NCBI RefSeq assembly: GCF_014203115.1
Contig: NZ_JACHIJ010000002.1
Span: forward strand, 496,001-560,000
Source of the DNA: Afipia massiliensis
GTDB taxonomy: Bacteria > Pseudomonadota > Alphaproteobacteria > Rhizobiales > Xanthobacteraceae
Reading direction: 5' to 3'
DNA: 64,000 nt
A model generated the notes under the pieces. It was not told the origin of the DNA, searched no databases, and was given only the letters and a program-made list of their open reading frames with translations. Positions within the stretch are counted from its first letter, which is position 1. Each line of letters begins with the position of its first letter. Shown in pieces: positions 43,903 through 54,629 of the stretch. The translations under genes and the position numbers were made by a program.

Positions 43903-43947
43903 GCGGTATGCGTGGCGGGCGCCCGGAATGACGCAAGACAAAGAAAA

Positions 43948-43971
43948 CCCCCGGCAGTTTCCTGCCGGGGG
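43948..43971 (-). terminator. Terminator of porin gene 1
   Basis: Stem CCCCCGGCAG / CTGCCGGGGG with a TTTC loop; on the minus strand it is followed by TTTTCTTTG. Identical to the terminator of the second porin. Confidence 0.85.
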
Positions 43972-44011
43972 TCTTTTAGTTCAGGTCGTAATCGCCACTA
44001 GGCGGTTACTA

Positions 44012-45514
44012 TTACCAGGTGCGGCGAACGCGGAGGTTGCCGGACCAGATGCCCTGATCTTCGTAGTTGTAGTTGCCAGCCGGCTTGAAGGCACCCATGG
44101 TGTTGGCAGCAGCAACAACCGTGCCGCTCATCGACTGATCGAGGTTGGTGTACATCACTTCGCCCGAGAACGTCAGGTTACGAACCGGAGTCCATGCGGT
44201 ACGCGTACCGATCTGCCAGATGGCAAAGTCAGGGTTGCAGTTCGCACGCGGCGTTCCGACGACAACCTGAGCAGCATAACGTGCACAGTAGAGGTCAGAC
44301 GCATTGTTGTTGTAATCGATGCGCGTGTAGCTGCCGAACAAGCTGGATTCCCAGTTCGGGGTCCAGTTGTGAACGTAAGCGCCACGGAAGCCCCAACCAG
44401 TGGTCTTCTCGATCTTCGTGCCTGCGCCGTAGATGCCATCGAACAGCGACATAACGGCGAAGCTGTTGTAGTTGGCACCCGAACCACCGCTGAAGTGGTC
44501 GAAGTTGTTGCCGGTCACGCCGCTGATGAGGTACTTCATCGCGCCGTCAGCATAGGTCGCGTCCAACGACAGCTTGTCGCCAGGGCCGGTCGGCAGGTTC
44601 TTCAGCTGAATGCCGCCAGAGATCGCGAAGCCCCACGTATCTTCGGGATGACCGTTGGTTTCAACAGTGGCAGCCGACGCGCCGTTCGCATAGTAGTTGG
44701 CGTGAAGGTTATGCACAGCACCCGACAACTGAGCGGTGAACGCAGCCTGGTCGACACGGATGTTGCCGACGAAGTCAGGCGAAACGTTTCCGCCGTAGGA
44801 GTTCGGATAAGCGCCCTGACCCAAGGCCAAAGCTGCCTGAGCAGCGGTCAGAGTGATCGAGGTATCGAGCATCTGAGCGCGGTTGATGACGCGGTTGTCT
44901 TCGATGCCGACCTGAGCCGACACGCCGTTGCCGAACTGCCACGTGTAGGCGATCTGGTTGATACCAGTCGCGTTGTCGTAGCCGCCGAGCAGGAACGAGG
45001 TGTTGTTGTTGGCGCCGTAAGCACCCCATGGGGTCTGGAAGCCAGAGACCGCCTTACCGAGGGTGAAGCCGGCGAACTGGATGAAGCCGTAGTCCATCGT
45101 CAGGTTGCCCGACGACGGGCCGAAGCCGGTCGAATGTTCGAAGTTGCTCGACCAGTAGGTACGAACAACGCCGTATTCGGTGGCGGTACGGGTGTCGATG
45201 TTCAGCTGAACGCGAGCGCGGGTGGTGAAGTAGTCGCTGTCGCGGCTGCCGGTACCGTTAGCGCGGAACCCGCCTTCATCCCATGCTGGCTTGCCGTAGT
45301 TGCCGGCGTTGATGTTCCAGTCAGCCTGGACGTAGCCGCCCAGCTTGATGCAGGTGTCGGTGCCGGGGATGTAGTAGAAACCGGCTCCGTAAAGGGAGCA
45401 GATCTTCACGTACTGAACGGCTTTCGCCTTGACGGGAAGATCGGCTGCCTGTGCTCCAGCGGACGCTGCGATAACCGCAGCCGATCCGAGGATAAGGCTC
45501 TTAATGGTGCTCAT
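44012..45514 (-). CDS. Outer-membrane porin (Porin_2 family), copy 1
   Basis: A 500-residue trimeric-porin-type beta-barrel for diffusion of small solutes. The signal peptide MSTIKSLILGSAAVIAASAGAQA is cut before ADLP, and the mature part begins with AVQYVKICSLYGAGFYYIPG, a two-Cys N-terminus typical of alphaproteobacterial Porin_2 proteins; the C-terminus ends LRVRRTW with the terminal aromatic residue. AGGTTTT/TTGGAGG precedes the start. A nearly identical second gene lies 3 kb away (first about 210 residues differ at only a few positions, later loops differ more). Transcribed towards its own terminator. Confidence 0.94.
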   Translation of the reverse strand: MSTIKSLILGSAAVIAASAGAQAADLPVKAKAVQYVKICSLYGAGFYYIPGTDTCIKLGGYVQADWNINAGNYGKPAWDEGGFRANGTGSRDSDYFTTRARVQLNIDTRTATEYGVVRTYWSSNFEHSTGFGPSSGNLTMDYGFIQFAGFTLGKAVSGFQTPWGAYGANNNTSFLLGGYDNATGINQIAYTWQFGNGVSAQVGIEDNRVINRAQMLDTSITLTAAQAALALGQGAYPNSYGGNVSPDFVGNIRVDQAAFTAQLSGAVHNLHANYYANGASAATVETNGHPEDTWGFAISGGIQLKNLPTGPGDKLSLDATYADGAMKYLISGVTGNNFDHFSGGSGANYNSFAVMSLFDGIYGAGTKIEKTTGWGFRGAYVHNWTPNWESSLFGSYTRIDYNNNASDLYCARYAAQVVVGTPRANCNPDFAIWQIGTRTAWTPVRNLTFSGEVMYTNLDQSMSGTVVAAANTMGAFKPAGNYNYEDQGIWSGNLRVRRTW

Positions 45515-45555
45515 AAAACCTCCAAGTTTTGCTCTCTAGGGAAGGTTCCGGGCCG

Positions 45556-45574
45556 GTGGTGTAAGTCACACCAC
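45556..45574 (-). promoter_or_regulatory. Conserved leader hairpin of porin 1
   Basis: GTGGTGT-AAGTC-ACACCAC, 42 bases before the start codon, unchanged in the leader of porin 2 and next to a conserved AACCAACC stretch. A candidate for control by antisense RNA or RNase. Confidence 0.5.
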
Positions 45575-45703
45575 GTGGTTGGTTCCCTTAATCCCCGCTA
45601 ACCGCCCGGTCGCCTCGCGCTTTCGGACACTCCCGCTGAACGCGAGCGACTTAAGCGAAACTCCCAAACGGGACGACCTCGGGATGCCCCCCTCCGTCGC
45701 TTC

Positions 45704-46214
45704 GATGACCATTGCCCAACAGTCGTGAACACACAACAAAAGACCGCCTTGAAACGGTGCGGTTCCGGCCGTTTTTAAGGAGATGTTGCACAAATGGCAC
45801 GCAACCTGTTGCTGGCATCCCACACAAGCTGTTGATACTATTTAGCTTTTGCAACCACCCCAGAATGTTCCATGAAATGGTCATTATGGCAGCGCACACG
45901 GCATCAGGTGCGTTGCGGCTGTGAATTGCGCGAATCGAAGCACCTGAAAAACGGCCTTCGATGCCCTGTGTCTCGGCGCTCAATCCTGGTGAAACCGTCG
46001 CCCGAACAAGCTTTGTTCCCGCTTTTGGAACGTCACAGTGGCCGCTCTTCTCACCAATTACGGCGCAACCGCGACGGGACACGCCTACCGAGTGCGATGG
46101 TCGCGACATTATAAAGGCAGGAGAACGATTTGAAGGAGCCTGAGGCAAACACAGGCTTTATAAAAGTCATCCGCGACTTGCGGCGCGTCATCGTGTGAGG
46201 CATATCGAGCCTGT
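45704..46214. other. Upstream region of porin 1 up to tRNA-Ser
   Basis: 511 bases of AT-richer DNA with no supported gene. It should hold the porin promoter on the minus strand and, at its right end, the tRNA-Ser promoter. Short open frames here lack ribosome sites and family features. Confidence 0.45.
46178..46206 (+). promoter_or_regulatory. Candidate promoter of tRNA-Ser
   Basis: TTGCGG (46178-46183), a 17-base spacer and CATATC (46201-46206), ending 8 bases before the first base of the tRNA. A good sigma-70-type match. Confidence 0.55.
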
Positions 46215-46306
46215 GGAGACGTGGCCGAGCGGCTGAAGGCACTCGTTTGCTAAATGAGCATACCTTGAAAAGGGTATCGAGGGTTCGAATCCCTCCGTCT
46301 CCGCCA
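46215..46306 (+). tRNA. tRNA-Ser, anticodon GCU
   Basis: Acceptor stem GGAGACG (46215-46221) pairs with CGTCTCC (46296-46302); discriminator G and encoded CCA follow. The anticodon stem CTCGT/ATGAG holds the loop TTGCTAA, giving GCU. A long variable arm (CATACCTTGAAAAGGGTATC) is the serine type, and the T loop GGTTCGAATCC is intact. Its 3' end is repeated beside the integrase, so it is the likely insertion site of the neighbouring element. Confidence 0.97.
46293..46306. repeat. Left attachment site (attL) in the tRNA-Ser 3' end
   Basis: CTCCGTCTCCGCCA, the last 14 bases of the tRNA gene, found again in the same orientation at 53113-53126 next to the integrase. Confidence 0.6.
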
Positions 46307-46525
46307 ACACCTATAAAACTATAGCTATATCAAGAAGTTAGCACGAGGCGCTGCACTACCAATGTTTCTACCCATGCGCGGCGACGTATAGGGTGACTAA
46401 CCGCGCCGGATCTCTTCCTCCCCAAGCGACTCAGGCTACTTTCAGGCTAGTTTAGCCGGCTTCCCACATTTTCAGATGCACGCCCGCGTCGATTTCCAGC
46501 CCTACTGCCACAGCGAAGGACCTGC

Positions 46526-47005
46526 ATGAGCAATCAGGAGTTCGAATTAAGGGCGAGCGCTTCCGAGCTGTCAGAGTTAGTGGGCGCTAGGTCCAAGGAC
46601 ATCGATAATTGGCTGCAGCGCCCAGAACTCCTTACTCGCTTCAAATCGACACGCACGGGCGCGCGGCGCTCTGTAAGTCGCCTGAACGTAATCGAGTTGG
46701 CATTCTTGGCTGCCTTTGTACGAACCGGGATTAAGGCTTCTACCGCAGTAAAACTAGCGTCCGATTTCGCTGTTCGAGCCAACCGCAAAGAGCTATCTGA
46801 TTGGCTTGTATTCGAACCAGGCGAAGATCCTAGCGGAGCTGGGACGCTGGATCACCTGCCCTCAACCGAAACGCTAACCTTACGGACGGCCACTGCAAGG
46901 CCGCCGATCGTCGTTCTAATCAACGTCGGCGAAATGGTTCGACGCATCGATGAGGTGTTCAGCACACGGCTAATTCGACGTGAGCTGAAGCTGACTCGCG
47001 ACTAG
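46526..47005 (+). CDS. MerR-like helix-turn-helix protein of unknown role
   Basis: A 159-residue protein. The N-terminal half looks like a MerR-type DNA-binding unit (SASELSELVGARSKDIDNWLQR, residues about 12-33, then RRSVSRLNVIELAFLAAFVRTG with the wing-like helix). The rest has no recognised domain and contains PPIVVLINVGEMVRRIDEVF. GAAGGA stands 6 bases before the ATG. Base composition is lower in GC than the flanking housekeeping genes, fitting acquired DNA. It lies 220 bases downstream of tRNA-Ser, inside the proposed element. Confidence 0.65.
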   Translation: MSNQEFELRASASELSELVGARSKDIDNWLQRPELLTRFKSTRTGARRSVSRLNVIELAFLAAFVRTGIKASTAVKLASDFAVRANRKELSDWLVFEPGEDPSGAGTLDHLPSTETLTLRTATARPPIVVLINVGEMVRRIDEVFSTRLIRRELKLTRD

Positions 47006-47037
47006 TTCAGTCTGTATCTCCCTAATGAAATAAAGAA

Positions 47038-47061
47038 CCCCCGGCAGTTTCCTGCCGGGGG
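47038..47061 (-). terminator. Terminator of porin gene 2
   Basis: Same CCCCCGGCAG-TTTC-CTGCCGGGGG hairpin as behind porin 1, followed on the minus strand by TTCTTTATTTC. Confidence 0.85.
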
Positions 47062-47101
47062 TCTTTTAGTTCAGGTCGTAATCGCCGTTAGGCGATTGCG
47101 A

Positions 47102-48628
47102 TTACCAGGTGCGGCGAACGCGGAGGTTGCCAACCCAGATGCCCTGATCCTTGTAGTCGTAGGTGGCGCCTGGCTTGAAGGCAGCGTTGCCGCCACCCTG
47201 GCCTGCAGCAAGAACCTGCGAACCAGTGTTCGACTGGTCGAGCTCGGTGTAGAGCACTTCGCCCGAGAACGTCAGGTTCTTGACCGGAGTCCAGGCGGTA
47301 CGGGTACCAACCTGCCAGATCTTGAAGTCAGGGTTACAGGTGTAACCGTTGACCTTCACAGACTGTCCCAGCTGCGCAGCGCAGATGCCAGCTGAAGCGT
47401 TGCTGTTGTAGTCGATGTTCGTGTAGCTGCCGAACACGCTGGTTTCCCAATTCGGGGTCCAGTTGTGGACGTAAGCGCCGCGGAAGCCCCAGCCCGAGGT
47501 CTTCTCGATGCTGCCGCCGGTGGTGTACACACCGTCGGCGAGCGACAGAACAGCGAGGCTCTGGTAGCTGCCAGCGAAGTTCGTATCACCACTGAACTTG
47601 TCGAAGTTGTTGCCGGTCACGCCGCCGATGAGGTATTTCATCGCGCCGTTAGCATAGGTAGCATCCAACGACAGCTTGTCGCCAGGGCCGGTCGGCAGGT
47701 TCTTCAACTGGATGCCAACCGACACCGCTCCACCCCATTCATCCGACGGATGACCGTTCGGCTCAACCGGAGCTGCGCCCGCTGGGCCAGCATAGTAGTT
47801 GGCGTGAAGGTTGTGCAGAGCACCCGACACCTGAGCGGTGAAGGCAGCCTGATCGATCCGGAGGTTACCGGTGATGTCAGGCGACACGTTGCCGCCGTAC
47901 GAGTTGGTGTAGGCACCGGTCACAGCAATCGCGCTGCCAGCACCAGTATTGGCCGCCAGCGAAGCGTTGATCAGCTGAGCGCGGTTGATGACGCGGTTGT
48001 CTTCAATGCCGATTTGACCCGACACGCCGTTGCCGAACTGCCACGTGTAGGCGATCTGGTTGATGCCAGTCGCGTTGTCGTAGCCGCCGAGCACGAACGA
48101 GGTGTTGTTGTTGGCGCCGTAAGCACCCCATGGGGTCTGGAAGCCAGAGACTGCCTTACCGAGGGTGAAACCGGCGAACTGGATGAAGCCGTAGTCCATC
48201 GTCAGGTTGCCCGACGTCGGGCCGAAGCCGCTCGAATGTTCGAAGTTGCTCGACCAGTAGGTGCGAACAACGCCGTATTCGGTGGCGGTGCGGGTGTCGA
48301 TGTTCAGCTGAACGCGAGCGCGGGTGGTGAAGTAGTCGCTGTTGCGGCTTCCGCTGCCGTAAGTGCCAGCAATAGCGTTGGTCGAGGCTTCGTCCCAAGC
48401 TGGCTTGCCGTAGTTATTGCCGTTGATGTTCCAGTCAGCCTGGACGTAGCCGCCCAGCTTGATGCAGGTGTCAGTGCCGGGGATGTAGTAGAAACCGGCG
48501 CCGTAAAGGGAGCAGATCTTCACGTACTGAACGGCTTTCGCCTTGACGGGAAGATCGGCTGCCTGTGCTCCAGCGGACGCTGCGATAACCGCAGCCGATC
48601 CGAGGATAAGGCTCTTAATGTTGCTCAT
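47102..48628 (-). CDS. Outer-membrane porin (Porin_2 family), copy 2
   Basis: A 508-residue paralogue of porin 1. The signal peptide differs by one residue (MSNIKSL against MSTIKSL), and the first 70 mature residues are almost the same. Differences cluster in what should be surface loops: an insertion after PAWDEA, a different region around residues 230-260, and changes near FSGDTNFAGSYQS and AAQLGQSVKVNGY. The C-terminus LRVRRTW is kept. It lies inside the segment bracketed by the tRNA-Ser repeat. The two copies could provide pore variants with different selectivity or phage sensitivity. Confidence 0.93.
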   Translation of the reverse strand: MSNIKSLILGSAAVIAASAGAQAADLPVKAKAVQYVKICSLYGAGFYYIPGTDTCIKLGGYVQADWNINGNNYGKPAWDEASTNAIAGTYGSGSRNSDYFTTRARVQLNIDTRTATEYGVVRTYWSSNFEHSSGFGPTSGNLTMDYGFIQFAGFTLGKAVSGFQTPWGAYGANNNTSFVLGGYDNATGINQIAYTWQFGNGVSGQIGIEDNRVINRAQLINASLAANTGAGSAIAVTGAYTNSYGGNVSPDITGNLRIDQAAFTAQVSGALHNLHANYYAGPAGAAPVEPNGHPSDEWGGAVSVGIQLKNLPTGPGDKLSLDATYANGAMKYLIGGVTGNNFDKFSGDTNFAGSYQSLAVLSLADGVYTTGGSIEKTSGWGFRGAYVHNWTPNWETSVFGSYTNIDYNSNASAGICAAQLGQSVKVNGYTCNPDFKIWQVGTRTAWTPVKNLTFSGEVLYTELDQSNTGSQVLAAGQGGGNAAFKPGATYDYKDQGIWVGNLRVRRTW

Positions 48629-48669
48629 AAAACCTCCAAGTTTTGCTCTCTAGGGAAGGTCCCGGGCCG

Positions 48670-48688
48670 GTGGTGTAAGTCACACCAC
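48670..48688 (-). promoter_or_regulatory. Conserved leader hairpin of porin 2
   Basis: Same GTGGTGT-AAGTC-ACACCAC hairpin as in the porin 1 leader, at the same distance from the start codon. Confidence 0.5.
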
Positions 48689-48817
48689 TTGGTTGGTTCC
48701 CTTAATCCCCGCTAACCGCCCGGTCGCCTCGCGCTTTCGGACACTCCCGCTGAACGCGAGCGACTTAAGCGAAACTCCCAAACGGGACGACCTCGGGATG
48801 CCCCCCTCCGTCGCTTC

Positions 48818-49096
48818 CACAAAGATGCCGGATGAATGCCTTGTTGCACAAGAATTGATTGGCAATTGCTCGGATTTGGACACGGTTGTGTGGTTTTCAC
48901 GCAACAGAAAGGGGGCCTTTTCCCCTATTGGTAGCCCTGGAGGGGCTAATGCTGGCGAAAGTACAACTCCTGGCCCCCTGCCCGACCGCTCGATGAGCAT
49001 CGACTCAGCGACTCAGTCGCGCATCGATGATGGCGGCGGGGGGTGTATGTCCGGCTTTACAACAACTCTGCTTTTATTACCGTAGATACAGGCGAC
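48818..49096. other. Gap between the porin 2 leader and the Rep-like gene
   Basis: 279 bases beyond the porin homology. It probably contains the porin 2 promoter and the end of the Rep-like transcription unit. One feature, CCCTGGAGGGG within a GGGG...CCCC-rich run at 48910-48945, can fold. No gene is supported. Confidence 0.4.
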
Positions 49097-50077
49097 TCAG
49101 GAAACGAGAGCATTTTCACCGCTAGACGGCAGAAAATGAGCAATGGGGATGTTCTTGAGAAACGGCCCTGAGCCGTAGTTCTGGATCAGCGCCTGAACGC
49201 ACAAGCTGCCGGATTTATCGTATGCATACGCGCGCCAGAGAACTTGCCCGGTACGGCGGTCGTCGGGTCCCGGTTCTTGCCGCCGCTTCCCGAAACGCTT
49301 GTTCAGGCTATGGCGACCTAGCCGGGCGATATCGACATCGCGTAACACGAGGTGCTTCTGCCAGAAGGCGCGGAAGTCGAACGCGAGCAAATCCGCGATG
49401 CTGGCAATGCCAACGGCGCGCACGGCGCGGGCAGAGCAAATCCGATACTCGATATGCAGGCAATCGACCTCGCCGGTGACGGGGCTGGGTTTTGAGATGT
49501 ATCCGCTGAGATATTTGCCGTTCCATCGGCGGCCGGTCGACATGCCGCCGTTGTCAAACTCGATGGCCTCGTTCTTGCCATTCCAAAGCTGGACGAAGCA
49601 TCGCTTGAACGCAGCGAACGCCTCGCGCAGGATCTGTTCGTTCGCCAGAATGATGTCGAGCGCGATTTCGAGATAGATGATGAGCGGCGGTTGACGGTCA
49701 CGCTTCGGCAACGCGCCGTCGCCTTTCGGAATGCGGTCATCGCGTGAGGCCAGGTATTCGAGCGCCACGCGGTTTGCGCCGACAAGTTGAACCTGTTCTT
49801 TGAAGGGGAAGATGTTCAACTGCCGGAATGCGCCGCTCGCATCCTTTATCCATTGCCCATGCCGATGCACGTCGAGGCTTTGACAGTTATCCGCGAGATG
49901 CTGCTGTTCTTCGGTTGTCAGCGACCGCTTGAACAGAATGCGGCCCGAGTGCGCGTAAACGTAAACGTCGAGCGGCGCGAGCGCGACTAGGAAAGCGGCG
50001 GCGTCAGGGCGAGTCGAACGGCCAACCGGACGCGGGGGCCTTGGGGAACTAGCCGGGTTGACCGCCGCCGCGCGCAT
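49097..50077 (-). CDS. Rep-like protein of the integrated element
   Basis: A 326-residue protein not firmly assigned. The central and C-terminal parts (NGKYLSGYISKP, then DCLHIEYRICSARAVRAVGI and DLLAFDFRAFWQKHLVL) recall rolling-circle plasmid or filamentous-phage replication initiators, where a strand with H-x-E-x-R is followed by a helix naming the host-strand nuclease region. I do not see the full HUH and Tyr set with certainty, so replication is inference. The N-terminal 25 residues are Pro/Arg-rich and the true start could be further downstream (the ATG at 50075-50077 has only a weak ribosome site). It lies at the end of the int-alpA run. Confidence 0.45.
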   Translation of the reverse strand: MRAAAVNPASSPRPPRPVGRSTRPDAAAFLVALAPLDVYVYAHSGRILFKRSLTTEEQQHLADNCQSLDVHRHGQWIKDASGAFRQLNIFPFKEQVQLVGANRVALEYLASRDDRIPKGDGALPKRDRQPPLIIYLEIALDIILANEQILREAFAAFKRCFVQLWNGKNEAIEFDNGGMSTGRRWNGKYLSGYISKPSPVTGEVDCLHIEYRICSARAVRAVGIASIADLLAFDFRAFWQKHLVLRDVDIARLGRHSLNKRFGKRRQEPGPDDRRTGQVLWRAYAYDKSGSLCVQALIQNYGSGPFLKNIPIAHFLPSSGENALVS

Positions 50078-50414
50078 TTGAAGGGCCTTTTGGACCGGTT
50101 GTAATTCGGCCCCGAGGGGGCCGCCCGTGAAGCCCCGGCTTTTGGCCGGGGTTTGGAACCCGTTTTGTCGCCCCTGTCGCGGCCCACGGTAAGCATTTCG
50201 CGTTCAGGGGCGGCAGTGCCCGCCCTCTTGCCGGAAAACGGCCGTCGCGGCTGTGTCAGAATGCAACCTCCGTCGAAAGCCTCAACTGCTGGGTGCACGC
50301 TGGGGGCGGCACCCAACAGCCGCGCCGCCGTGCCGGAGCGCGAGAAAGGAAACCAAACCGCGCTCGCTGCCTGCCGCGCCCCGAAAGGTAGGCCGCAGAC
50401 TCAGGGTGTTGTTT
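50078..50414. other. Hairpin-rich non-coding stretch upstream of the Rep-like gene
   Basis: 337 bases with several strong inverted repeats: GCCCCGGC-TTTTG-GCCGGGG (about 50133-50152) and GCTGGGTG...CACCCAACAGC (about 50289-50322), with GGGGCGGC repeats. No gene is supported. The arrangement could be an origin or the leader of the Rep-like gene. Confidence 0.4.
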
Positions 50415-50704
50415 CTATGAACGAGGACACCGCCCTGTGGTCTTCGCCAGCGGCAGCGTCATCGAACTGCGGCTGGAGATGCGAGCCTTCTGCGCATCGT
50501 ACATATCCGCGCGCCGGTCTAGCTCAGCATCGGTGAGGGACAACGAACCCGGCCGGTGGCCCGCACTATCGAAGACCGGCATGGCGTCCATGAGAGTCAT
50601 CTCGGCTCTGATCGACTCGCCATCGCGGCAAAAATAATTGCCCTCGGACTCGTCGAGAATTCTCACGAACTTGCCGTCGCGATATAGCTTGGTAGGTTTT
50701 TCAT
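50415..50704 (-). pseudogene. Small element gene with a frameshift near its start
   Basis: A readable frame of 83 codons from a GTG at 50666 begins MRILDESEGNYFCRDGESIRAEM. Upstream in the same frame lies KPTKLYRDGKFV, but the natural start, an ATG at 50704 with an ideal GAGGTAAC ribosome site and only 5 bases after the alpA stop, is in another frame. Adding one A to the run of five A at 50697-50701 would join them as MKKPTKLYRDGKFV-RILDESEG. So the gene is either frameshifted, read by slippage, or carries a sequencing error. The product resembles small proteins of other Bradyrhizobiaceae islands; the function is unknown. Confidence 0.55.
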
Positions 50705-50709
50705 TTCAG

Positions 50710-51054
50710 TTACCTCGCTTTGCGCCGCCCATCGGCGCTGGTTGAGTTCGTACGGCGCGGGACGCGCGCCGGGCGTGCATCATCGCGCGCAGCCTTCGGC
50801 GGGCGGCGACCACGCTTCAATGTTTGAGGTTCATCAGATGATGGCGCGCGCGACTTCTCGATGCGCTCCCTGATCCAGTCCTGAATTTCGCTTTCGATCC
50901 AAGCTACGCGGTTGACGCTGAGCGCAATCTGCTTCGGAAAAGCACCGGCGGCCATCATCACGTAGAGGCTAGGCGCAGGTATGCCGGTCATATCGACGAC
51001 CTGTTGCATTCGCACCAGTCGGGTCGCCTGCTGCTGAACTTCTGGTGAACCCAT
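50710..51054 (-). CDS. AlpA-type regulatory protein
   Basis: A 114-residue protein with an AlpA/excisionase-like winged helix: TRLVRMQQVVDMTGIPAPSLYVMM (about 11-34), then FPKQIALSVNRVAWIESEIQDWI, the usual R-x-x-W-x-x-x-E-[IV]-x-x-W signature. The last 45 residues are basic and disordered. Such proteins switch on integrase or excision genes of P4-like satellites. GAGGT precedes the ATG. Between the unknown 207-residue gene and the frameshifted small gene. Confidence 0.85.
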   Translation of the reverse strand: MGSPEVQQQATRLVRMQQVVDMTGIPAPSLYVMMAAGAFPKQIALSVNRVAWIESEIQDWIRERIEKSRAPSSDEPQTLKRGRRPPKAARDDARPARVPRRTNSTSADGRRKAR

Positions 51055-51110
51055 CGCGCCAAACCTCGTGAACGATAACGAGGTCTAGCCGGTACTAAGC
51101 CCGCAGACTC

Positions 51111-51734
51111 CTAGACTTTAACGGGCTTATTTCCGGTGAACACGGCGAGTGCTTCGACCAGTTCGTCAACGAGGGGACGCGCCGCGAAGCGCAACTCACG
51201 GCAAACAAGATATTCCGCGTGCTTGGTCGGGCCGACTTTATACGGCGATTTCTTCGACGCACCGGGCAGGCCGATCAGGTCGGTGGCCTCCAATGGCGCG
51301 TTCAGCTTCGAAAACTCCGCGCTCGTCTTGGCCGCCGTCACGCGGGCTAGTTCTTTTATCTCATCGCTATTCAGTCGTTCGCGACCGTATCGATCAGTGA
51401 AAATATCTCGCGCGGCGCACATAAACCAAACCGCGACTTCAATGGCCTCTTGCTCATCGGTGGGAGTGCCGGACGGTCCACCATGGCGGCGTTCGAGAAA
51501 TTCCTTCAGCAGCAAGGCGACAGCAGCACGGCCTTGCGGCGTGAGGGGGGCGTCGCTGTTGATGTATTCAACAAGGTCGTCCCACTTGCCGTCTCTGGCG
51601 CGTATGACCAGCCATGACAGATGATCGCCGGGCTTGGTTCGGGTCGGGCGCTTCACAGCAAAGCCGCCTTCCGAGCGTTTCACAACGCGGTTATTTTTGC
51701 GATTGCTTAGAATCTCTTCGTACCTCGATGCCAT
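51111..51734 (-). CDS. Unknown protein encoded behind the integrase
   Basis: A 207-residue soluble protein, rich in helices, without a recognised domain. It begins MASRYEEILSNRKNNRVVKRSEGG; its start codon overlaps the integrase stop (TGATG), so it is translated with the integrase. Notable segments are GDHLSWLVIRARDGKWDDLVEYI, a helix LTPQGRAAVALLLKEFLERRHGG, and IKELARVTAAKTSAEFSKLNAP. Its position suggests a role in the element's maintenance or transfer, which cannot be shown here. Confidence 0.7.
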   Translation of the reverse strand: MASRYEEILSNRKNNRVVKRSEGGFAVKRPTRTKPGDHLSWLVIRARDGKWDDLVEYINSDAPLTPQGRAAVALLLKEFLERRHGGPSGTPTDEQEAIEVAVWFMCAARDIFTDRYGRERLNSDEIKELARVTAAKTSAEFSKLNAPLEATDLIGLPGASKKSPYKVGPTKHAEYLVCRELRFAARPLVDELVEALAVFTGNKPVKV

Positions 51735-52960
51735 CACGCTAAGTCCCCTTTACGCAGCGGGGTCACAACGCCATCGCGCTTTGCCGGTGGCTGAGCACAA
51801 TAGTTCATCCAGTCACGCATGAGTCTGCGCCTCTTCTCCAACAAGTCACCGCGCCGGTACGCGGCCTCGACTTTGTCGGCGACCGCGTGCCAGAGCGCGG
51901 CCTCGCTTACGATGTTTTCGTAACGGGTGCATTCCGCCGCCCAGTCTTTGAAGCTGGACCTAAATCCGTGGACCGTCATGCCCTTGCGCACCATGCCGCG
52001 CACGAGTTCGAGCATGGCCATATTCGAGATGCCCTTGCCTCGCGTGCCGCCGACGAAAACATGCGGGTTGCCGTCCTCACGCGGCAACGCCTTCAAGATG
52101 GTGATGGCACGGTCGCAAAGCGGAACGACCTTCGGTTTGTTGCCCTCGATTTTCACCCCCGCGCGATCCGGCGGAACCGTCCAGAGTTTTTCGGCTAGGT
52201 CGAGTTCGTGCCACGTTGCCCCGATCACAGCGCCGGTGCGCGCGGCGGTGAGGATCGTGAATTCCAAGGCGCGAGCGCTGATGCTGTCACGCTTGCGCAG
52301 TTCGGTCATGAAGCCGGGTACGGCAGTATATGGCATCGCCTCGTGGTTCTTGACCCTTGCCAGCCGCGACCGGCCCGGAAAATCATGAGCAAGGTTTCCG
52401 CGCCACGCGGCCGGGTTGTCCCCCTCCCGCGCCCCGTTCGATTTTGCGTAATCGAGTATCTTTTCGATGCGGCCACGGATGCGTTCGGCCGTTTCTGGCG
52501 TCTTGGCCCAAACCGGCTTCAGCACCTTCAGGACTTTGGTCTTATCGACATCGCATACCGCCTCATCGCCAATGTCCGGGTAGACGTAGGTCGTGAGGGT
52601 GTTGGTCCATTGCTGGCGATGCTTCGCGTTTCGCCAGCCGGGTGCCTGTGCCTCAACATAGGCCGTGGCCATCTGCTTGAACGTGGTCTTTTTGCGGGCT
52701 TGGGCTTTCGTGTCCGCAATCGGGTCAATGCCGTCGTCTAGTTGGTCCCGGCACTTCCCAGCCTTTTTGCGTGCTTTCTCCAAGCCGACCTGAGGATAAG
52801 GGCCGAGTCCTTTCTGACGGACCCGGCCACCGATGCGGTACTGAAATATCCACGCGCGCGTGTTGAACGCGGAAACCTGAAACCAGAGGCCACCACCGTC
52901 AGCATACCGACCTCGCTCAGTGAATGATTTCAACTGAGTTGCTGTCAGCCGATGAAGCAT
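51734..52960 (-). CDS. P4-type tyrosine recombinase/integrase
   Basis: A 408-residue integrase. N-terminal DUF4102-like arm-binding part (GGLWFQVSAFNTRAWIFQYRIGG in pieces, RQKGLGPYPQVGLEKAR), a core-binding domain (about 95-200), and a catalytic domain with Arg in TAARTGAVIG, His-x-x-Arg in VHGFRSSF, His in LWHAVADKVEAAYRRGDL and the nucleophile Tyr in AAYRRGD. It sits 150 bases from the tRNA-Ser tail repeat (53113-53126), its expected attachment site. All catalytic residues are present, so it may still be active. Confidence 0.93.
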   Translation of the reverse strand: MLHRLTATQLKSFTERGRYADGGGLWFQVSAFNTRAWIFQYRIGGRVRQKGLGPYPQVGLEKARKKAGKCRDQLDDGIDPIADTKAQARKKTTFKQMATAYVEAQAPGWRNAKHRQQWTNTLTTYVYPDIGDEAVCDVDKTKVLKVLKPVWAKTPETAERIRGRIEKILDYAKSNGAREGDNPAAWRGNLAHDFPGRSRLARVKNHEAMPYTAVPGFMTELRKRDSISARALEFTILTAARTGAVIGATWHELDLAEKLWTVPPDRAGVKIEGNKPKVVPLCDRAITILKALPREDGNPHVFVGGTRGKGISNMAMLELVRGMVRKGMTVHGFRSSFKDWAAECTRYENIVSEAALWHAVADKVEAAYRRGDLLEKRRRLMRDWMNYCAQPPAKRDGVVTPLRKGDLA

Positions 52961-53112
52961 CGAAAAACCCTACCCATTTTTGTACCCATACATTGCATCC
53001 TGAAGGGGCTATTTCCCCCCATAACCGCTAAGGCATAGAAGCCGGGATAAGTCCATGGGAACGATGGGTTTTTTCAATTAGGGTAAATTAGGCTAGAAGC
53101 CCGCCGGGCGGA
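52961..53112. other. Integrase upstream region with possible arm sites
   Basis: About 150 bases between the integrase start and the repeat. Contains TACCCA/TGGGTA-like boxes (CCCTACCCATTTTTG, TGTACCCATAC and, in reverse, GATGGGTTTTTT). A similar TTTCTACCCATGC box lies at 46366-46378 near the other end. They could be integrase arm sites and the int promoter. Confidence 0.3.
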
Positions 53113-53126
53113 CTCCGTCTCCGCCA
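53113..53126. repeat. Right attachment site (attR), copy of the tRNA-Ser tail
   Basis: CTCCGTCTCCGCCA, identical to the last 14 bases of tRNA-Ser (46293-46306), in the same orientation. The bases before it (GGGCGGA) do not continue the tRNA match. Confidence 0.6.
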
Positions 53127-53217: not shown

Positions 53218-53453
53218 ATGTGGTACGTCTATCTGCTGGAGAGCGATACCGCCGAAAATCAGCGCTATGTCGGCGTAACCTCAGATTTGAAACGGCGCAC
53301 CGCCGAACACAATGCTGGAAAATCTACGCATACATCGAAGTTCATGCCTTGGCGGCTCGTGACCTACGTGGCTTTCTCGGATGAAGCCAAGGCGGCTTCA
53401 TTTGAGCATTATCCGGCTCGGGGCACGCCTTCGCTAACAAGCGTCTGTGGTAG
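53218..53453 (+). pseudogene. Decayed GIY-YIG nuclease-like gene
   Basis: The frame starts MWYVYLLESDTAENQRYVGVTSDLKRR, a GIY-YIG domain (YVYLLES ... RYVG) like UPF0213 proteins of about 90 residues. It stays in the normal family up to SFEHY (about residue 64), then shifts: the next bases read, in another frame, SGSGHAFANKRLW-stop, the family's usual end (stop TAG at 53451-53453). About 7 bases appear to be missing at 53411. The gene is thus frameshifted. It is preceded by a tRNA tail, a palindrome and a covered ribosome site. Confidence 0.8.
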
Positions 53454-53523
53454 GGATCGTATCACGCAGGCGCGGCGCTCGAAGCCAATGCGCTCAGCAG
53501 GTCAAAACCGGCAGCCATGTCTC

Positions 53524-53790
53524 TTAGTGCATCGCCATCCACGCCCGCGCTTCACGCTGAGCTGTTGCGATCTCGACATCGGACATCAGCCCGGCGACTT
53601 CCCGGCGCAGCGAGATGGCATCCACCCTGCCCTTGAGCGCAGCCAGGTTGAACCACTTGTGTGCGGCGACAAGATCGATCAGGCCGTTTCGCCCGCTCGA
53701 ATAGATCATGCCGAGGTCGAACAGGATGTCTCCGTTCGCCGCCTCCTCGACCGGCAGCGCGGTGCCGGTATCGATCGTTCCCTGAAACAT
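53524..53790 (-). CDS. Sel1-repeat-like protein
   Basis: An 88-residue acidic protein with one Sel1-type repeat: DILFDLGMIYSSGRNGLIDLVAAHKWFNLAALKG (residues about 21-54, in pieces LGMIYSSGRNG and AAHKWFNLAALKG), then a helix region ending VEIATAQREARAWMAMH. Sel1 repeats mediate protein-protein contacts; the partner is unknown. Small proteins of this layout are common in Rhizobiales. The 70 bases between it and the GIY-YIG remnant hold nothing recognised. Confidence 0.78.
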   Translation of the reverse strand: MFQGTIDTGTALPVEEAANGDILFDLGMIYSSGRNGLIDLVAAHKWFNLAALKGRVDAISLRREVAGLMSDVEIATAQREARAWMAMH

Positions 53791-54629
53791 CCTGGCTCTC
53801 CGATTTCCCGCCGCGGCGAGCGCGGCTCCTGTCGATATTCTGCTTGATGCGACCGTTGCTTTTGTTGGCGCGTATTCCGCAAAACCGGTTTGCCAATTCT
53901 GCGGAATACGCGTTCGCCGTTTGCCGGCTTGTTGGGATCATATGACCCGTAAAATTTGAATGGCAGTTTAAGCATCGCGATGAATCGAACGTGAACGCAG
54001 CGCTCGCGCGCCGCGCGTCGAATCGCAGAAATCCCATGTTTTCAAGCATTTCTCGGCAATCGTGACAATCGATTCACCTTCGTCTTTGGCGAAGCGATAA
54101 CCATTGCGCGGACAAGAGTCAGCGTGACGCGCATGGTCGCGCTTGCTGAGTGCAGGATGCTGACCGAGGCGGTCGCCGGTGTTCACAGCCGGGACTCTTA
54201 TCGACGAGACACACGCCGGATGCGGTCATTGCCCGCGCGGACAACGTCACGTCAGAGAGTCGGAGATTGTTTTCTGGTCTTGGAGAGATCGCCGCCGGAT
54301 GCACTCGAGGGAGGCATGGACAGTGCGGCTCAAAAAAACGAGGGCGTCGGTGAACACGTCAGGACTGAGATTTCACCGGGCCGCCTGCCGAGGCAGACCG
54401 CCGGGAAACTGCGAGGTCATCCCCCGCAACGAACGAAGAGCTCTTGAACTCTTCTGCCTGACCGGCCCCTTGCGGGAACGATGGTCAGACCGTCTCGCCT
54501 GATGTCTCGCCGACACCCTCTTTCGTCGACTGGAGCCGCCGGTTCAAACTCGTTCTTGCGAACAGATCAGCCTGGCGGCTCTTGTGACGATGCCGGCATC
54601 ATGTGCCGGCAATTCCATAAGGCGTAGCC
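53791..54629. other. Long stretch without a supported gene
   Basis: 839 bases upstream of the Sel1-like gene and downstream of the Lys-rich gene. It holds a palindrome at 53870-53911. Open frames of up to about 107 codons exist on both strands but lack ribosome sites, family motifs or a convincing codon pattern. GGGAGGC ATG at 54310-54318 has a ribosome site, but the 43 codons behind it do not look like a protein. A small RNA gene is possible. Confidence 0.4.
53870..53911. repeat. Rhizobial-type palindrome
   Basis: Perfect 12-bp arms GCGTATTCCGCA / TGCGGAATACGC around AAACCGGTTTGCCAATTC. The AAAACCGGT core is shared with the ribD-ribE palindrome. Confidence 0.75.

What the first reader, a model, noticed from the sequence alone, without database searches (positions are those of the whole stretch)
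46293..53126. A small element inserted in tRNA-Ser(GCU), with the integrase at the far end
Seen: the last 14 bases of tRNA-Ser (CTCCGTCTCCGCCA) recur beside a complete P4-type integrase, and between the two lie an AlpA-type regulator, a Rep-like protein and unknown genes. Known: P4-type integrases use tRNA 3' ends as attachment sites. The element has no conjugation genes, so it could be a satellite or an integrative element that replicates by rolling circle. Of the loci in this window, this is the one most likely to hold an undescribed system.
Basis: partly seen in the sequence, partly recalled or inferred. Interest (0 to 1): 0.75.

Follow-up and report, generated by a model that had tools for sequence, protein, structure and literature searches.

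The report
Small phage-satellite-like element in tRNA-Ser
A 6.8-kb mobile DNA element sits exactly in a serine tRNA gene; close relatives carry DNA-packaging genes and anti-phage defences but mostly no virus shell genes, so it looks like a stripped-down phage parasite that would need another virus to travel.

Summary
The exact 14-bp end of tRNA-Ser(GCU) recurs at 53113-53126, and a same-genus relative (G006) has the empty site: its tRNA runs straight into the DNA that follows 53126 here. The element is 46307-53126 (6,820 bp). Two sister elements of about 7.06 kb, one in this genome and one in another species, sit in other serine tRNA genes (GGA, UGA), each with the 14-bp repeat. The trio reads int - overlapping gene - alpA - P127 - (P281) - Rep - cargo - tRNA. 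Rep's model is closest to rolling-circle initiators (moderate support). The telling relatives are 9-15 kb tRNA islands with an integrase plus small and large terminase; in most no capsid gene was found, and several carry defence genes. One in the same genus (L144: same order, TerS-TerL, Thoeris cargo) branches next to the trio in the integrase tree. Best reading: a reduced phage satellite, laid out like Vibrio PICMIs, that lost terminase and P281 and now carries a porin, an allele of the porin gene beside the insertion site. Packaging by a helper is inferred, not shown; the integrase type and P281 also occur outside such satellites. New variant of a known kind.

The parts
46307..53126 (.). the integrated element, 6,820 bp, one copy of the 14-bp core included
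   Evidence: 14-bp repeat; empty site in G006 and others
46215..46306 (+). tRNA-Ser(GCU), integration target, left intact by the insertion
   Evidence: ARAGORN, Rfam tRNA
46293..46306 (+). attL core
   Evidence: exact 14-bp repeat
46526..47005 (+). 159-aa protein, cargo; helix-turn-helix nature is my reading of the sequence only
   Evidence: ORF; no family at E<=0.1 in Pfam, PHROGs, NCBIfam or PADLOC
47102..48628 (-). porin (Porin_2) carried as cargo, with similarity to the flanking porin continuing into its 5' and 3' surroundings
   Evidence: PF02530 E 2e-81; duplicate of the 43937-45558 region; tree
49097..50077 (-). Rep-like protein, 326 aa, rolling-circle-initiator-like model
50078..50476 (.). 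G+C-rich stretch upstream of Rep, 83% conserved with the sister element in the same genome; candidate origin (inference); holds an 11-nt, 91% inverted repeat at 50286-50319
50415..50666 (-). truncated copy (83 aa) of the P127 family, cut where about 1 kb (end of P127 + P281) is missing compared with L007; junction near 50476-50481
   Evidence: P127 profile E 9.5e-19
50710..51054 (-). AlpA-type regulator/excisionase
   Evidence: PF05930 E 1.1e-16, phrog_2790
51111..51737 (-). 208-aa gene overlapping int: 4 nt (GTGA) if it starts at GTG, 1 nt if at the ATG that follows; positional counterpart of PICMI iolg
   Evidence: homologue in L144 at E 4e-4
51734..52960 (-). P4-type tyrosine integrase, complete
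   Evidence: tree
53113..53126 (+). attR core
   Evidence: flank continuous with the tRNA in G006
44012..45514 (-). chromosomal porin beside the tRNA, outside the element; same locus in relatives

Best explanation
The element is a reduced phage satellite of the integrase-AlpA type. Int recombines the 14-bp core at the 3' end of tRNA-Ser; AlpA, with the int-overlapping gene, drives excision when a helper virus infects or is induced; the circle is copied by the Rep protein, probably by rolling circle into concatemers; a helper's own terminase and capsid package it. Its ancestors carried their own TerS-TerL followed by P127 and P281. The trio of sister elements lost TerS-TerL, and this copy also lost P281 and the end of P127. 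The slot between rep and the tRNA is a cargo slot: defence genes in several relatives, a porin and a small unknown gene here. Shown: insertion, empty site, gene order, homology to terminase-bearing elements, Rep under purifying selection. Inferred: excision by AlpA, rolling-circle replication, helper packaging, and the order of losses.
For: Exact att repeats in 3 of 3 trio members and an empty site. Order int-overlapping gene-alpA-P127-(P281)-Rep-cargo-tRNA in the trio, and int-overlapping gene-alpA-TerS-TerL-P127-P281-HTH-Rep-like-Thoeris-tRNA-Ser(UGA) in same-genus L144. Integrase tree: window + L007/L008 99/96; L144 next at 92/89, not a starred branch; then terminase-bearing Ser(GGA) elements. 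P127 and P281 follow TerL in 10 of the 35 named TerL loci (L095-L099, L106-L109, L114) and in L060, L061, L143, L144, L149, L150. 18 terminase elements bounded by tRNA repeats span 8.8-15.3 kb. Two of 91 other ORFs scanned are capsid proteins in the part of the lists shown; in nine P281-bearing elements no head, portal or tail family shows among 45 ORFs, 25 of 28 families listed. TerL assigned by PHROGs at E 1.7e-23 and 5.2e-25. Rep model nearest rolling-circle initiators.
Against: No packaging, capsid-remodelling or interference gene is recognisable in the window element, nor any remnant of TerL, TerS or P281, and a cos/pac signal cannot be read. P281 is not confined to these satellites: in L147 (same genus) a homologue stands beside Phage_cap_E and Clp-protease genes, a prophage-like setting, and L145-L147 hold P281 without this TerL. 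In 24 of the 35 named TerL loci neither P127 nor P281 was detected, in L102 P127 only. The integrase is not satellite-specific: of 12 further same-genus loci with an integrase 39-50% identical, none has Rep, P127, P281 or P208; 4 have an AlpA-like gene, 1 a weak TerL hit (E 3e-4), and one (L178) capsid and protease genes. The Rep model has mean pLDDT 63; Foldseek gives no match at E<=0.001 and ranks TATA-binding proteins first by E. No reads, helper or particle data.
Confidence: 0.6

Rival explanations
1. An integrative mobilizable element: Rep works as a relaxase on an oriT and a resident conjugative element carries it to new cells.
For: Rep's nearest folds are rolling-circle initiators, a fold shared with MobT-type relaxases (recalled). 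No capsid or terminase gene in the window element.
Against: No relaxase family among the Pfam, PHROGs or NCBIfam hits. Distant Rep homologues in five of seven loci fetched lie in elements with TerS-TerL, and the trio retains P127/P281, phage-associated genes elsewhere.
Confidence: 0.17
2. A dead or dying island: a satellite remnant that lost its packaging genes and no longer moves.
For: About 1 kb missing with a truncated P127 and no P281; terminase absent; a bulky porin as cargo.
Against: Int, overlapping gene, AlpA and Rep are open reading frames; Rep is under purifying selection (dN/dS 0.16 and 0.24); att sites are exact; PICMI115 moves without terS, sid or ppi homologues, and AH14b, without an identifiable terminase, was found packaged.
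Confidence: 0.15
3. An integrating plasmid-like element spread passively by transformation, generalized transduction or gene transfer agents, with no phage piracy.
For: Rep + integrase are enough for an integrating replicon; the own genome's only PF04860 portal lies in a terminase-portal-capsid cluster that looks like a gene transfer agent (that name is recalled).
Against: No plasmid relative of Rep; the backbone is shared with terminase-bearing elements, several of them with defence cargo.
Confidence: 0.08

Closest known systems
[quoted passage not shown] passages read)
   Same: Small size (6.1 kb prototype), int - int-overlapping gene (overlaps of 1, 4 or 13 nt) - alpA - extra gene - replication gene - variable cargo slot - target gene; no packaging genes found
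   Different: Rolling-circle-like Rep instead of the DUF3987/DUF5906 primase; tRNA-Ser instead of fis; an alphaproteobacterial family instead of Vibrionaceae; kin with terminase
Phi-AH14b of Antarctic Pseudomonas (PMC4936722; passages read)
   Same: Integrase, AlpA, own replication gene, no identifiable terminase or capsid gene; found in the capsids of AH14a
   Different: 16.8 kb, primase, Rha and other genes; homology not tested here
PICI and capsid-forming PICI (from passages of PMC11389934 and PMC10690885; PMC6092414 seen as search listing only)
   Same: Integrase and site-specific insertion; AlpA in PICIs (listing)
   Different: No capsid, capsid-remodelling or TerS gene recognised in the window element; the relatives have TerS-TerL but mostly no capsid gene found
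tmRNA islands moved by jumbo phages (PMC12595487; abstract and outline read)
   Same: Tyrosine integrase, direct repeats, defence cargo, no transfer genes
   Different: tmRNA target; no AlpA-Rep-terminase kinship stated in what I read
VEIMEs and tycheposons
   Same: Named as satellite families in passages read; tRNA association is recalled
   Different: Primary papers not read (VEIME paper not held); overlap with the terminase-bearing relatives cannot be excluded

Membership tests
PICMI | tyrosine integrase and AlpA next to each other | tested here: met
PICMI | gene overlapping int (iolg; common but not in the formal model) | tested here: met
   overlap of 4 nt (GTG start) or 1 nt (ATG start) at 51734-51737; by position only, sequence kinship to PICMI iolg not tested
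PICMI | primase with DUF3987/DUF5906 | tested here: not met
   no such hit at E<=1 in the element's genes
PICMI | insertion next to fis | tested here: not met
   inserted in tRNA-Ser(GCU)
PICMI | packaged as a concatemer by a virulent helper | not testable with these tools
   needs phage and reads
Phage satellite in general | mechanism or signal for packaging in a helper's particle | tested here: inconclusive
   no packaging gene recognised in the window element; terminase in close kin; cis signals unreadable
Capsid-forming PICI | own capsid, portal and protease genes | tested here: not met
   no such hit in the window element
P4-like satellite | P4-type structural/interference genes (sid, psu, delta; recalled) | tested here: not met
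   no such hit at E<=1 in Pfam or PHROGs
Integrative mobilizable element | relaxase and/or oriT | tested here: inconclusive
   no relaxase family hit but Rep's fold could serve; oriT not readable
Rolling-circle initiator (RepSTK1/RepDE-like) | initiator fold | tested here: inconclusive
Rolling-circle initiator (RepSTK1/RepDE-like) | catalytic tyrosine with acidic metal ligands (recalled) | tested here: inconclusive
   D141, Y193 and E210 invariant in 11 rows; D141 and Y193, not E210, in the 8-row alignment; their catalytic role is inferred

The most novel reading that the evidence does not exclude
The trio are the terminase-free end of an undescribed lineage of proteobacterial satellites that carry their own terminase pair but mostly no capsid, sit in alpha- and gammaproteobacterial tRNA genes, use either primases or rolling-circle initiators and exchange defence cargo. 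They reached the PICMI-like minimal layout independently by losing the terminase. P281, whose homologue in L147 stands beside a capsid gene, would be the lineage's head-morphogenesis or capsid-redirecting factor. The porin cargo would act as receptor change or exclusion, as reported (recalled) for the phage PA-2 Lc porin. A bolder form, also not excluded: the particle used is the host's gene transfer agent.
Probability: 0.3. Interest if true: 0.75.

Novelty: new variant of a known kind. Interest (0 to 1): 0.5.

Why it matters
It gives, inside one bacterial genus, collinear satellite-like elements with and without their own terminase at serine tRNA genes, so the question of how a satellite comes to depend fully on a helper's packaging becomes testable. 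The terminase lineage, with the L095 protein as query, has only 7 matching records among 50,697 phage records, at 22-30% identity. Several relatives carry recognisable defence genes, such as a Thoeris ThsA-ThsB pair in L144 and a restriction enzyme with methyltransferase in L062, which points to a vehicle for defence genes in these bacteria.

Tried and rejected
Simple tandem duplication as the origin of the second porin: rejected, because a tandem copy of 43937-47027 would have repeated the tRNA and the 159-aa gene, and neither recurs. Porin as an ancestral gene to the right of the tRNA: rejected, since in the empty site of G006 the tRNA joins the right flank directly. Recent copy of the host's own flanking porin: not supported; the element's copy is nearer the alleles of G008 (86%) and G001 (85%) than its own neighbour (83%), although its first third is 94% like the neighbour's; the clade with G008 and G001 has 86/94 support, below the starred level.

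Shared cos/pac or origin with known phages or plasmids: the stretch 50078-50480 has no match in phages or plasmids; in the genus its only long match besides itself is the sister element, the other 15 rows being 22-34-bp matches. Rep has no match in phages, plasmids or viral contigs, nor, with one protein as query, in genome contigs, and no solved relative by sequence.

Integrase as a marker of satellites: rejected; the tRNA column came out empty, so I draw nothing from it. P281 as a marker confined to terminase satellites: rejected. Structure of P281: never run, the machine was full each time. Search of viral contigs with P281: not possible. P281 in phage records: no match. Host genus: not established.

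Literature: searches listed no paper that, by title and start of abstract, describes such elements in Alphaproteobacteria. The lists were capped (15 of 123, 25 of 33, 12 of 96, 12 of 965, 10 of 13) and the library is partial.
Full report
What is there. The window holds tRNA-Ser(GCU) at 46215-46306. Its last 14 bases recur exactly once more, at 53113-53126. Of the 26 same-genus loci fetched with this tRNA (L020-L045), 13 have the window's right-hand flank within 1.5 kb behind the tRNA, and four are continuous across the joint: G006 over 1.5 kb at 94%, and L023, L034 and L036 for 34-49 bp, core included. The element is therefore 46307-53126, 6,820 bp.

Genes, from the right end: integrase (51734-52960 -), a 208-aa gene overlapping it by 4 or 1 nt according to its start codon, AlpA, an 83-aa fragment of a family I call P127, a G+C-rich stretch, Rep, then the cargo slot with a Porin_2 porin and a 159-aa gene, then the tRNA. 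Of the seven proteins, int, AlpA and the porin have significant family matches, the other four have none. The porin is a second allele of the porin that stands beside this tRNA in the nine relatives compared; the first third of these alleles is conserved, the rest variable. This genome has four full-length porin genes and two partial matches.

Sister elements. Rep is found in 2 of 29 genomes of the genus: a second copy in this genome (L007) and one in G023 (L008). Both lie in ~7.06-kb elements, at tRNA-Ser(GGA) and tRNA-Ser(UGA), with the last 14 bases of the tRNA repeated at the far end beside the integrase. Rep is 96% and 84% identical to the window's, with dN/dS 0.16 and 0.24, whereas the integrases are only 59-64% identical at the DNA level. 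So the rep module has a more recent common history than the int module: modules are exchanged. L007 and L008 carry full P127 and a further gene, P281; the window copy lacks about 1 kb there. Cargo differs: L008 has an HNH protein that resembles defence effectors and a Polbeta-type nucleotidyltransferase; the two L007 cargo genes scanned have no PADLOC match.

Distant relatives. A profile of the three Reps finds 9 of 391 family genomes. Of the seven new loci fetched (L058-L064), five (L058-L062) hold integrase, Rep, a small-terminase-like gene, a large terminase, P127 and P281. All five are of genus g25, which is Bradyrhizobium: contigs of three of them have the lengths of the named records behind L095, L108 and L109, which are the same loci. 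L063 has only an integrase and Rep, and L064 no hit. L058-L060 have exact tRNA repeats of 55, 45 and 16 bp. The large terminase is recognised by PHROGs at E 1.7e-23 and 5.2e-25. P281 occurs in 48 of 391 family genomes and 11 of 47 genera. The terminase was found in 35 loci of named genomes, mainly alpha- and gammaproteobacteria, and in 6 viral contigs. Of these 35, P127 and P281 follow TerL in ten, P127 alone in one, and neither was detected in 24. Of 25 terminase loci with a tRNA that I tested (of 26 with one), 21 have a repeat touching the tRNA's 3' end. Three of these (L100, L122, L127) I left out of the bounded set because the repeat was partial or the interval did not suit; 18 elements of 8.8-15.3 kb remain. 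Of 119 further ORFs of at least 120 aa in these I scanned 91, dropping 28 by eye. In the part of the lists shown (25 of 36 Pfam and 25 of 110 PHROG families) they match primases, restriction-modification genes and the like, one tail-component family, and two HK97-type capsid proteins, in L116 and L128. For nine P281-bearing elements (L095-L099, L106-L109) I scanned 45 of 49 such ORFs again with PHROGs: none of the 25 families shown of 28 is described as head, portal or tail, most having no description. So the wider group is mostly, not wholly, without recognisable capsid genes. Defence cargo: of 20 proteins given to PADLOC, matches include Thoeris ThsA and ThsB (L144), a type II restriction enzyme and methyltransferases (L062, L059), ShosA (L096), weak PD-T4-7 (L097), a candidate PDC-S59 (L106) and the HNH and nucleotidyltransferase-like proteins of L008; ten had none, among them the window's 159-aa protein and five cargo genes of terminase-bearing elements.

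The bridge. In the window's own genus the terminase is in 5 of 29 genomes, not in this one. In G004, L144 reads int - overlapping gene (4 nt, ATGA) - AlpA - TerS - TerL - P127 - P281 - HTH - a second Rep-like gene (my reading of the sequence; no family hit) - ThsA - ThsB - tRNA-Ser(UGA), with a 17-bp att repeat. The integrase tree puts the window with L007 and L008 (99/96), L144 next (92/89, not starred), then Ser(GGA) terminase elements; by path length L060 is slightly nearer the window than L144.

Results against. The rows of that tree were chosen through Rep, TerL or P281, so I ran a control with the integrase alone. Of 17 matches at 39% identity or more over a good length, four are the trio and L144, one stands at a contig end of this genome with no other profile hit, and the 12 others carry no Rep, P127, P281 or P208; four have an AlpA-like gene, one a weak TerL hit, and L178 capsid and S49-protease genes. 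Two of these 12 stretches are short (4.4 and 9 kb). The integrase type is thus shared with other islands. P281 is not exclusive either: in L147, same genus, a homologue stands next to Phage_cap_E and a Clp protease, in L146 in a tRNA-Gln-bounded stretch with a DUF5906 primase, and L145 has a fragment beside chromosomal genes; none of the three has this TerL. The satellite reading rests on P127/P281, the overlapping gene, AlpA and Rep together with the gene order of L144.

Standing. Element and boundaries: near certain. Kinship to terminase-bearing tRNA satellites: likely. Present-day movement by a helper: open. By its authors' definition it is not a PICMI, because primase and fis were tested and not met. 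It works like one, if it works at all.

Noticed in passing
window 44012-45514 and 47102-48628; L049-L057: The porin beside tRNA-Ser(GCU) is mosaic across the genus: against the window's flanking copy the first third of nine alleles is 85-97% identical, the last third 67-89%, as expected of a surface protein under diversifying exchange.
   Followed up: partly
L147 7606-10462 (G005): A P281 homologue stands directly before a Phage_cap_E capsid gene and a Clp protease gene: P281 may be a head-morphogenesis protein.
   Followed up: partly
L144 11796-13208 (G004): A terminase-bearing satellite-like element carries a Thoeris ThsA (macro domain) + ThsB (TIR) pair in its cargo slot.
   Followed up: yes
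L116 11610-12752, L128 11540-12700: Two distant members (Thiomicrospira, Roseinatronobacter) carry an HK97-type major capsid gene behind TerL, so capsid gain or loss happens within this terminase lineage.
   Followed up: partly
plasmids NZ_CP121649.1, NC_010373.1, NZ_CP019881.1, NZ_CP134887.1, NZ_CP024585.1: Terminases 47-55% identical to that of L144 lie on five Methylobacterium, Komagataeibacter and Roseomonas plasmids of 10-58 kb, annotated as hypothetical protein.
   Followed up: no
L185 (G000:C1:536000-555900): The genome's only PF04860 portal lies in a compact cluster with terminase and HK97-type capsid genes that resembles a gene transfer agent (name recalled).
   Followed up: partly
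L186 1318-2526 (G000:C1): A third related integrase (44%) stands near a contig end next to a very large repetitive gene.
   Followed up: partly
window 53218-53847: A GIY-YIG nuclease-like reading frame stands directly behind attR in the chromosome.
   Followed up: no
L178 7744-9833 (G008): Another island with a related integrase carries HK97-type capsid and S49 protease genes, perhaps a capsid-forming satellite or prophage.
   Followed up: no
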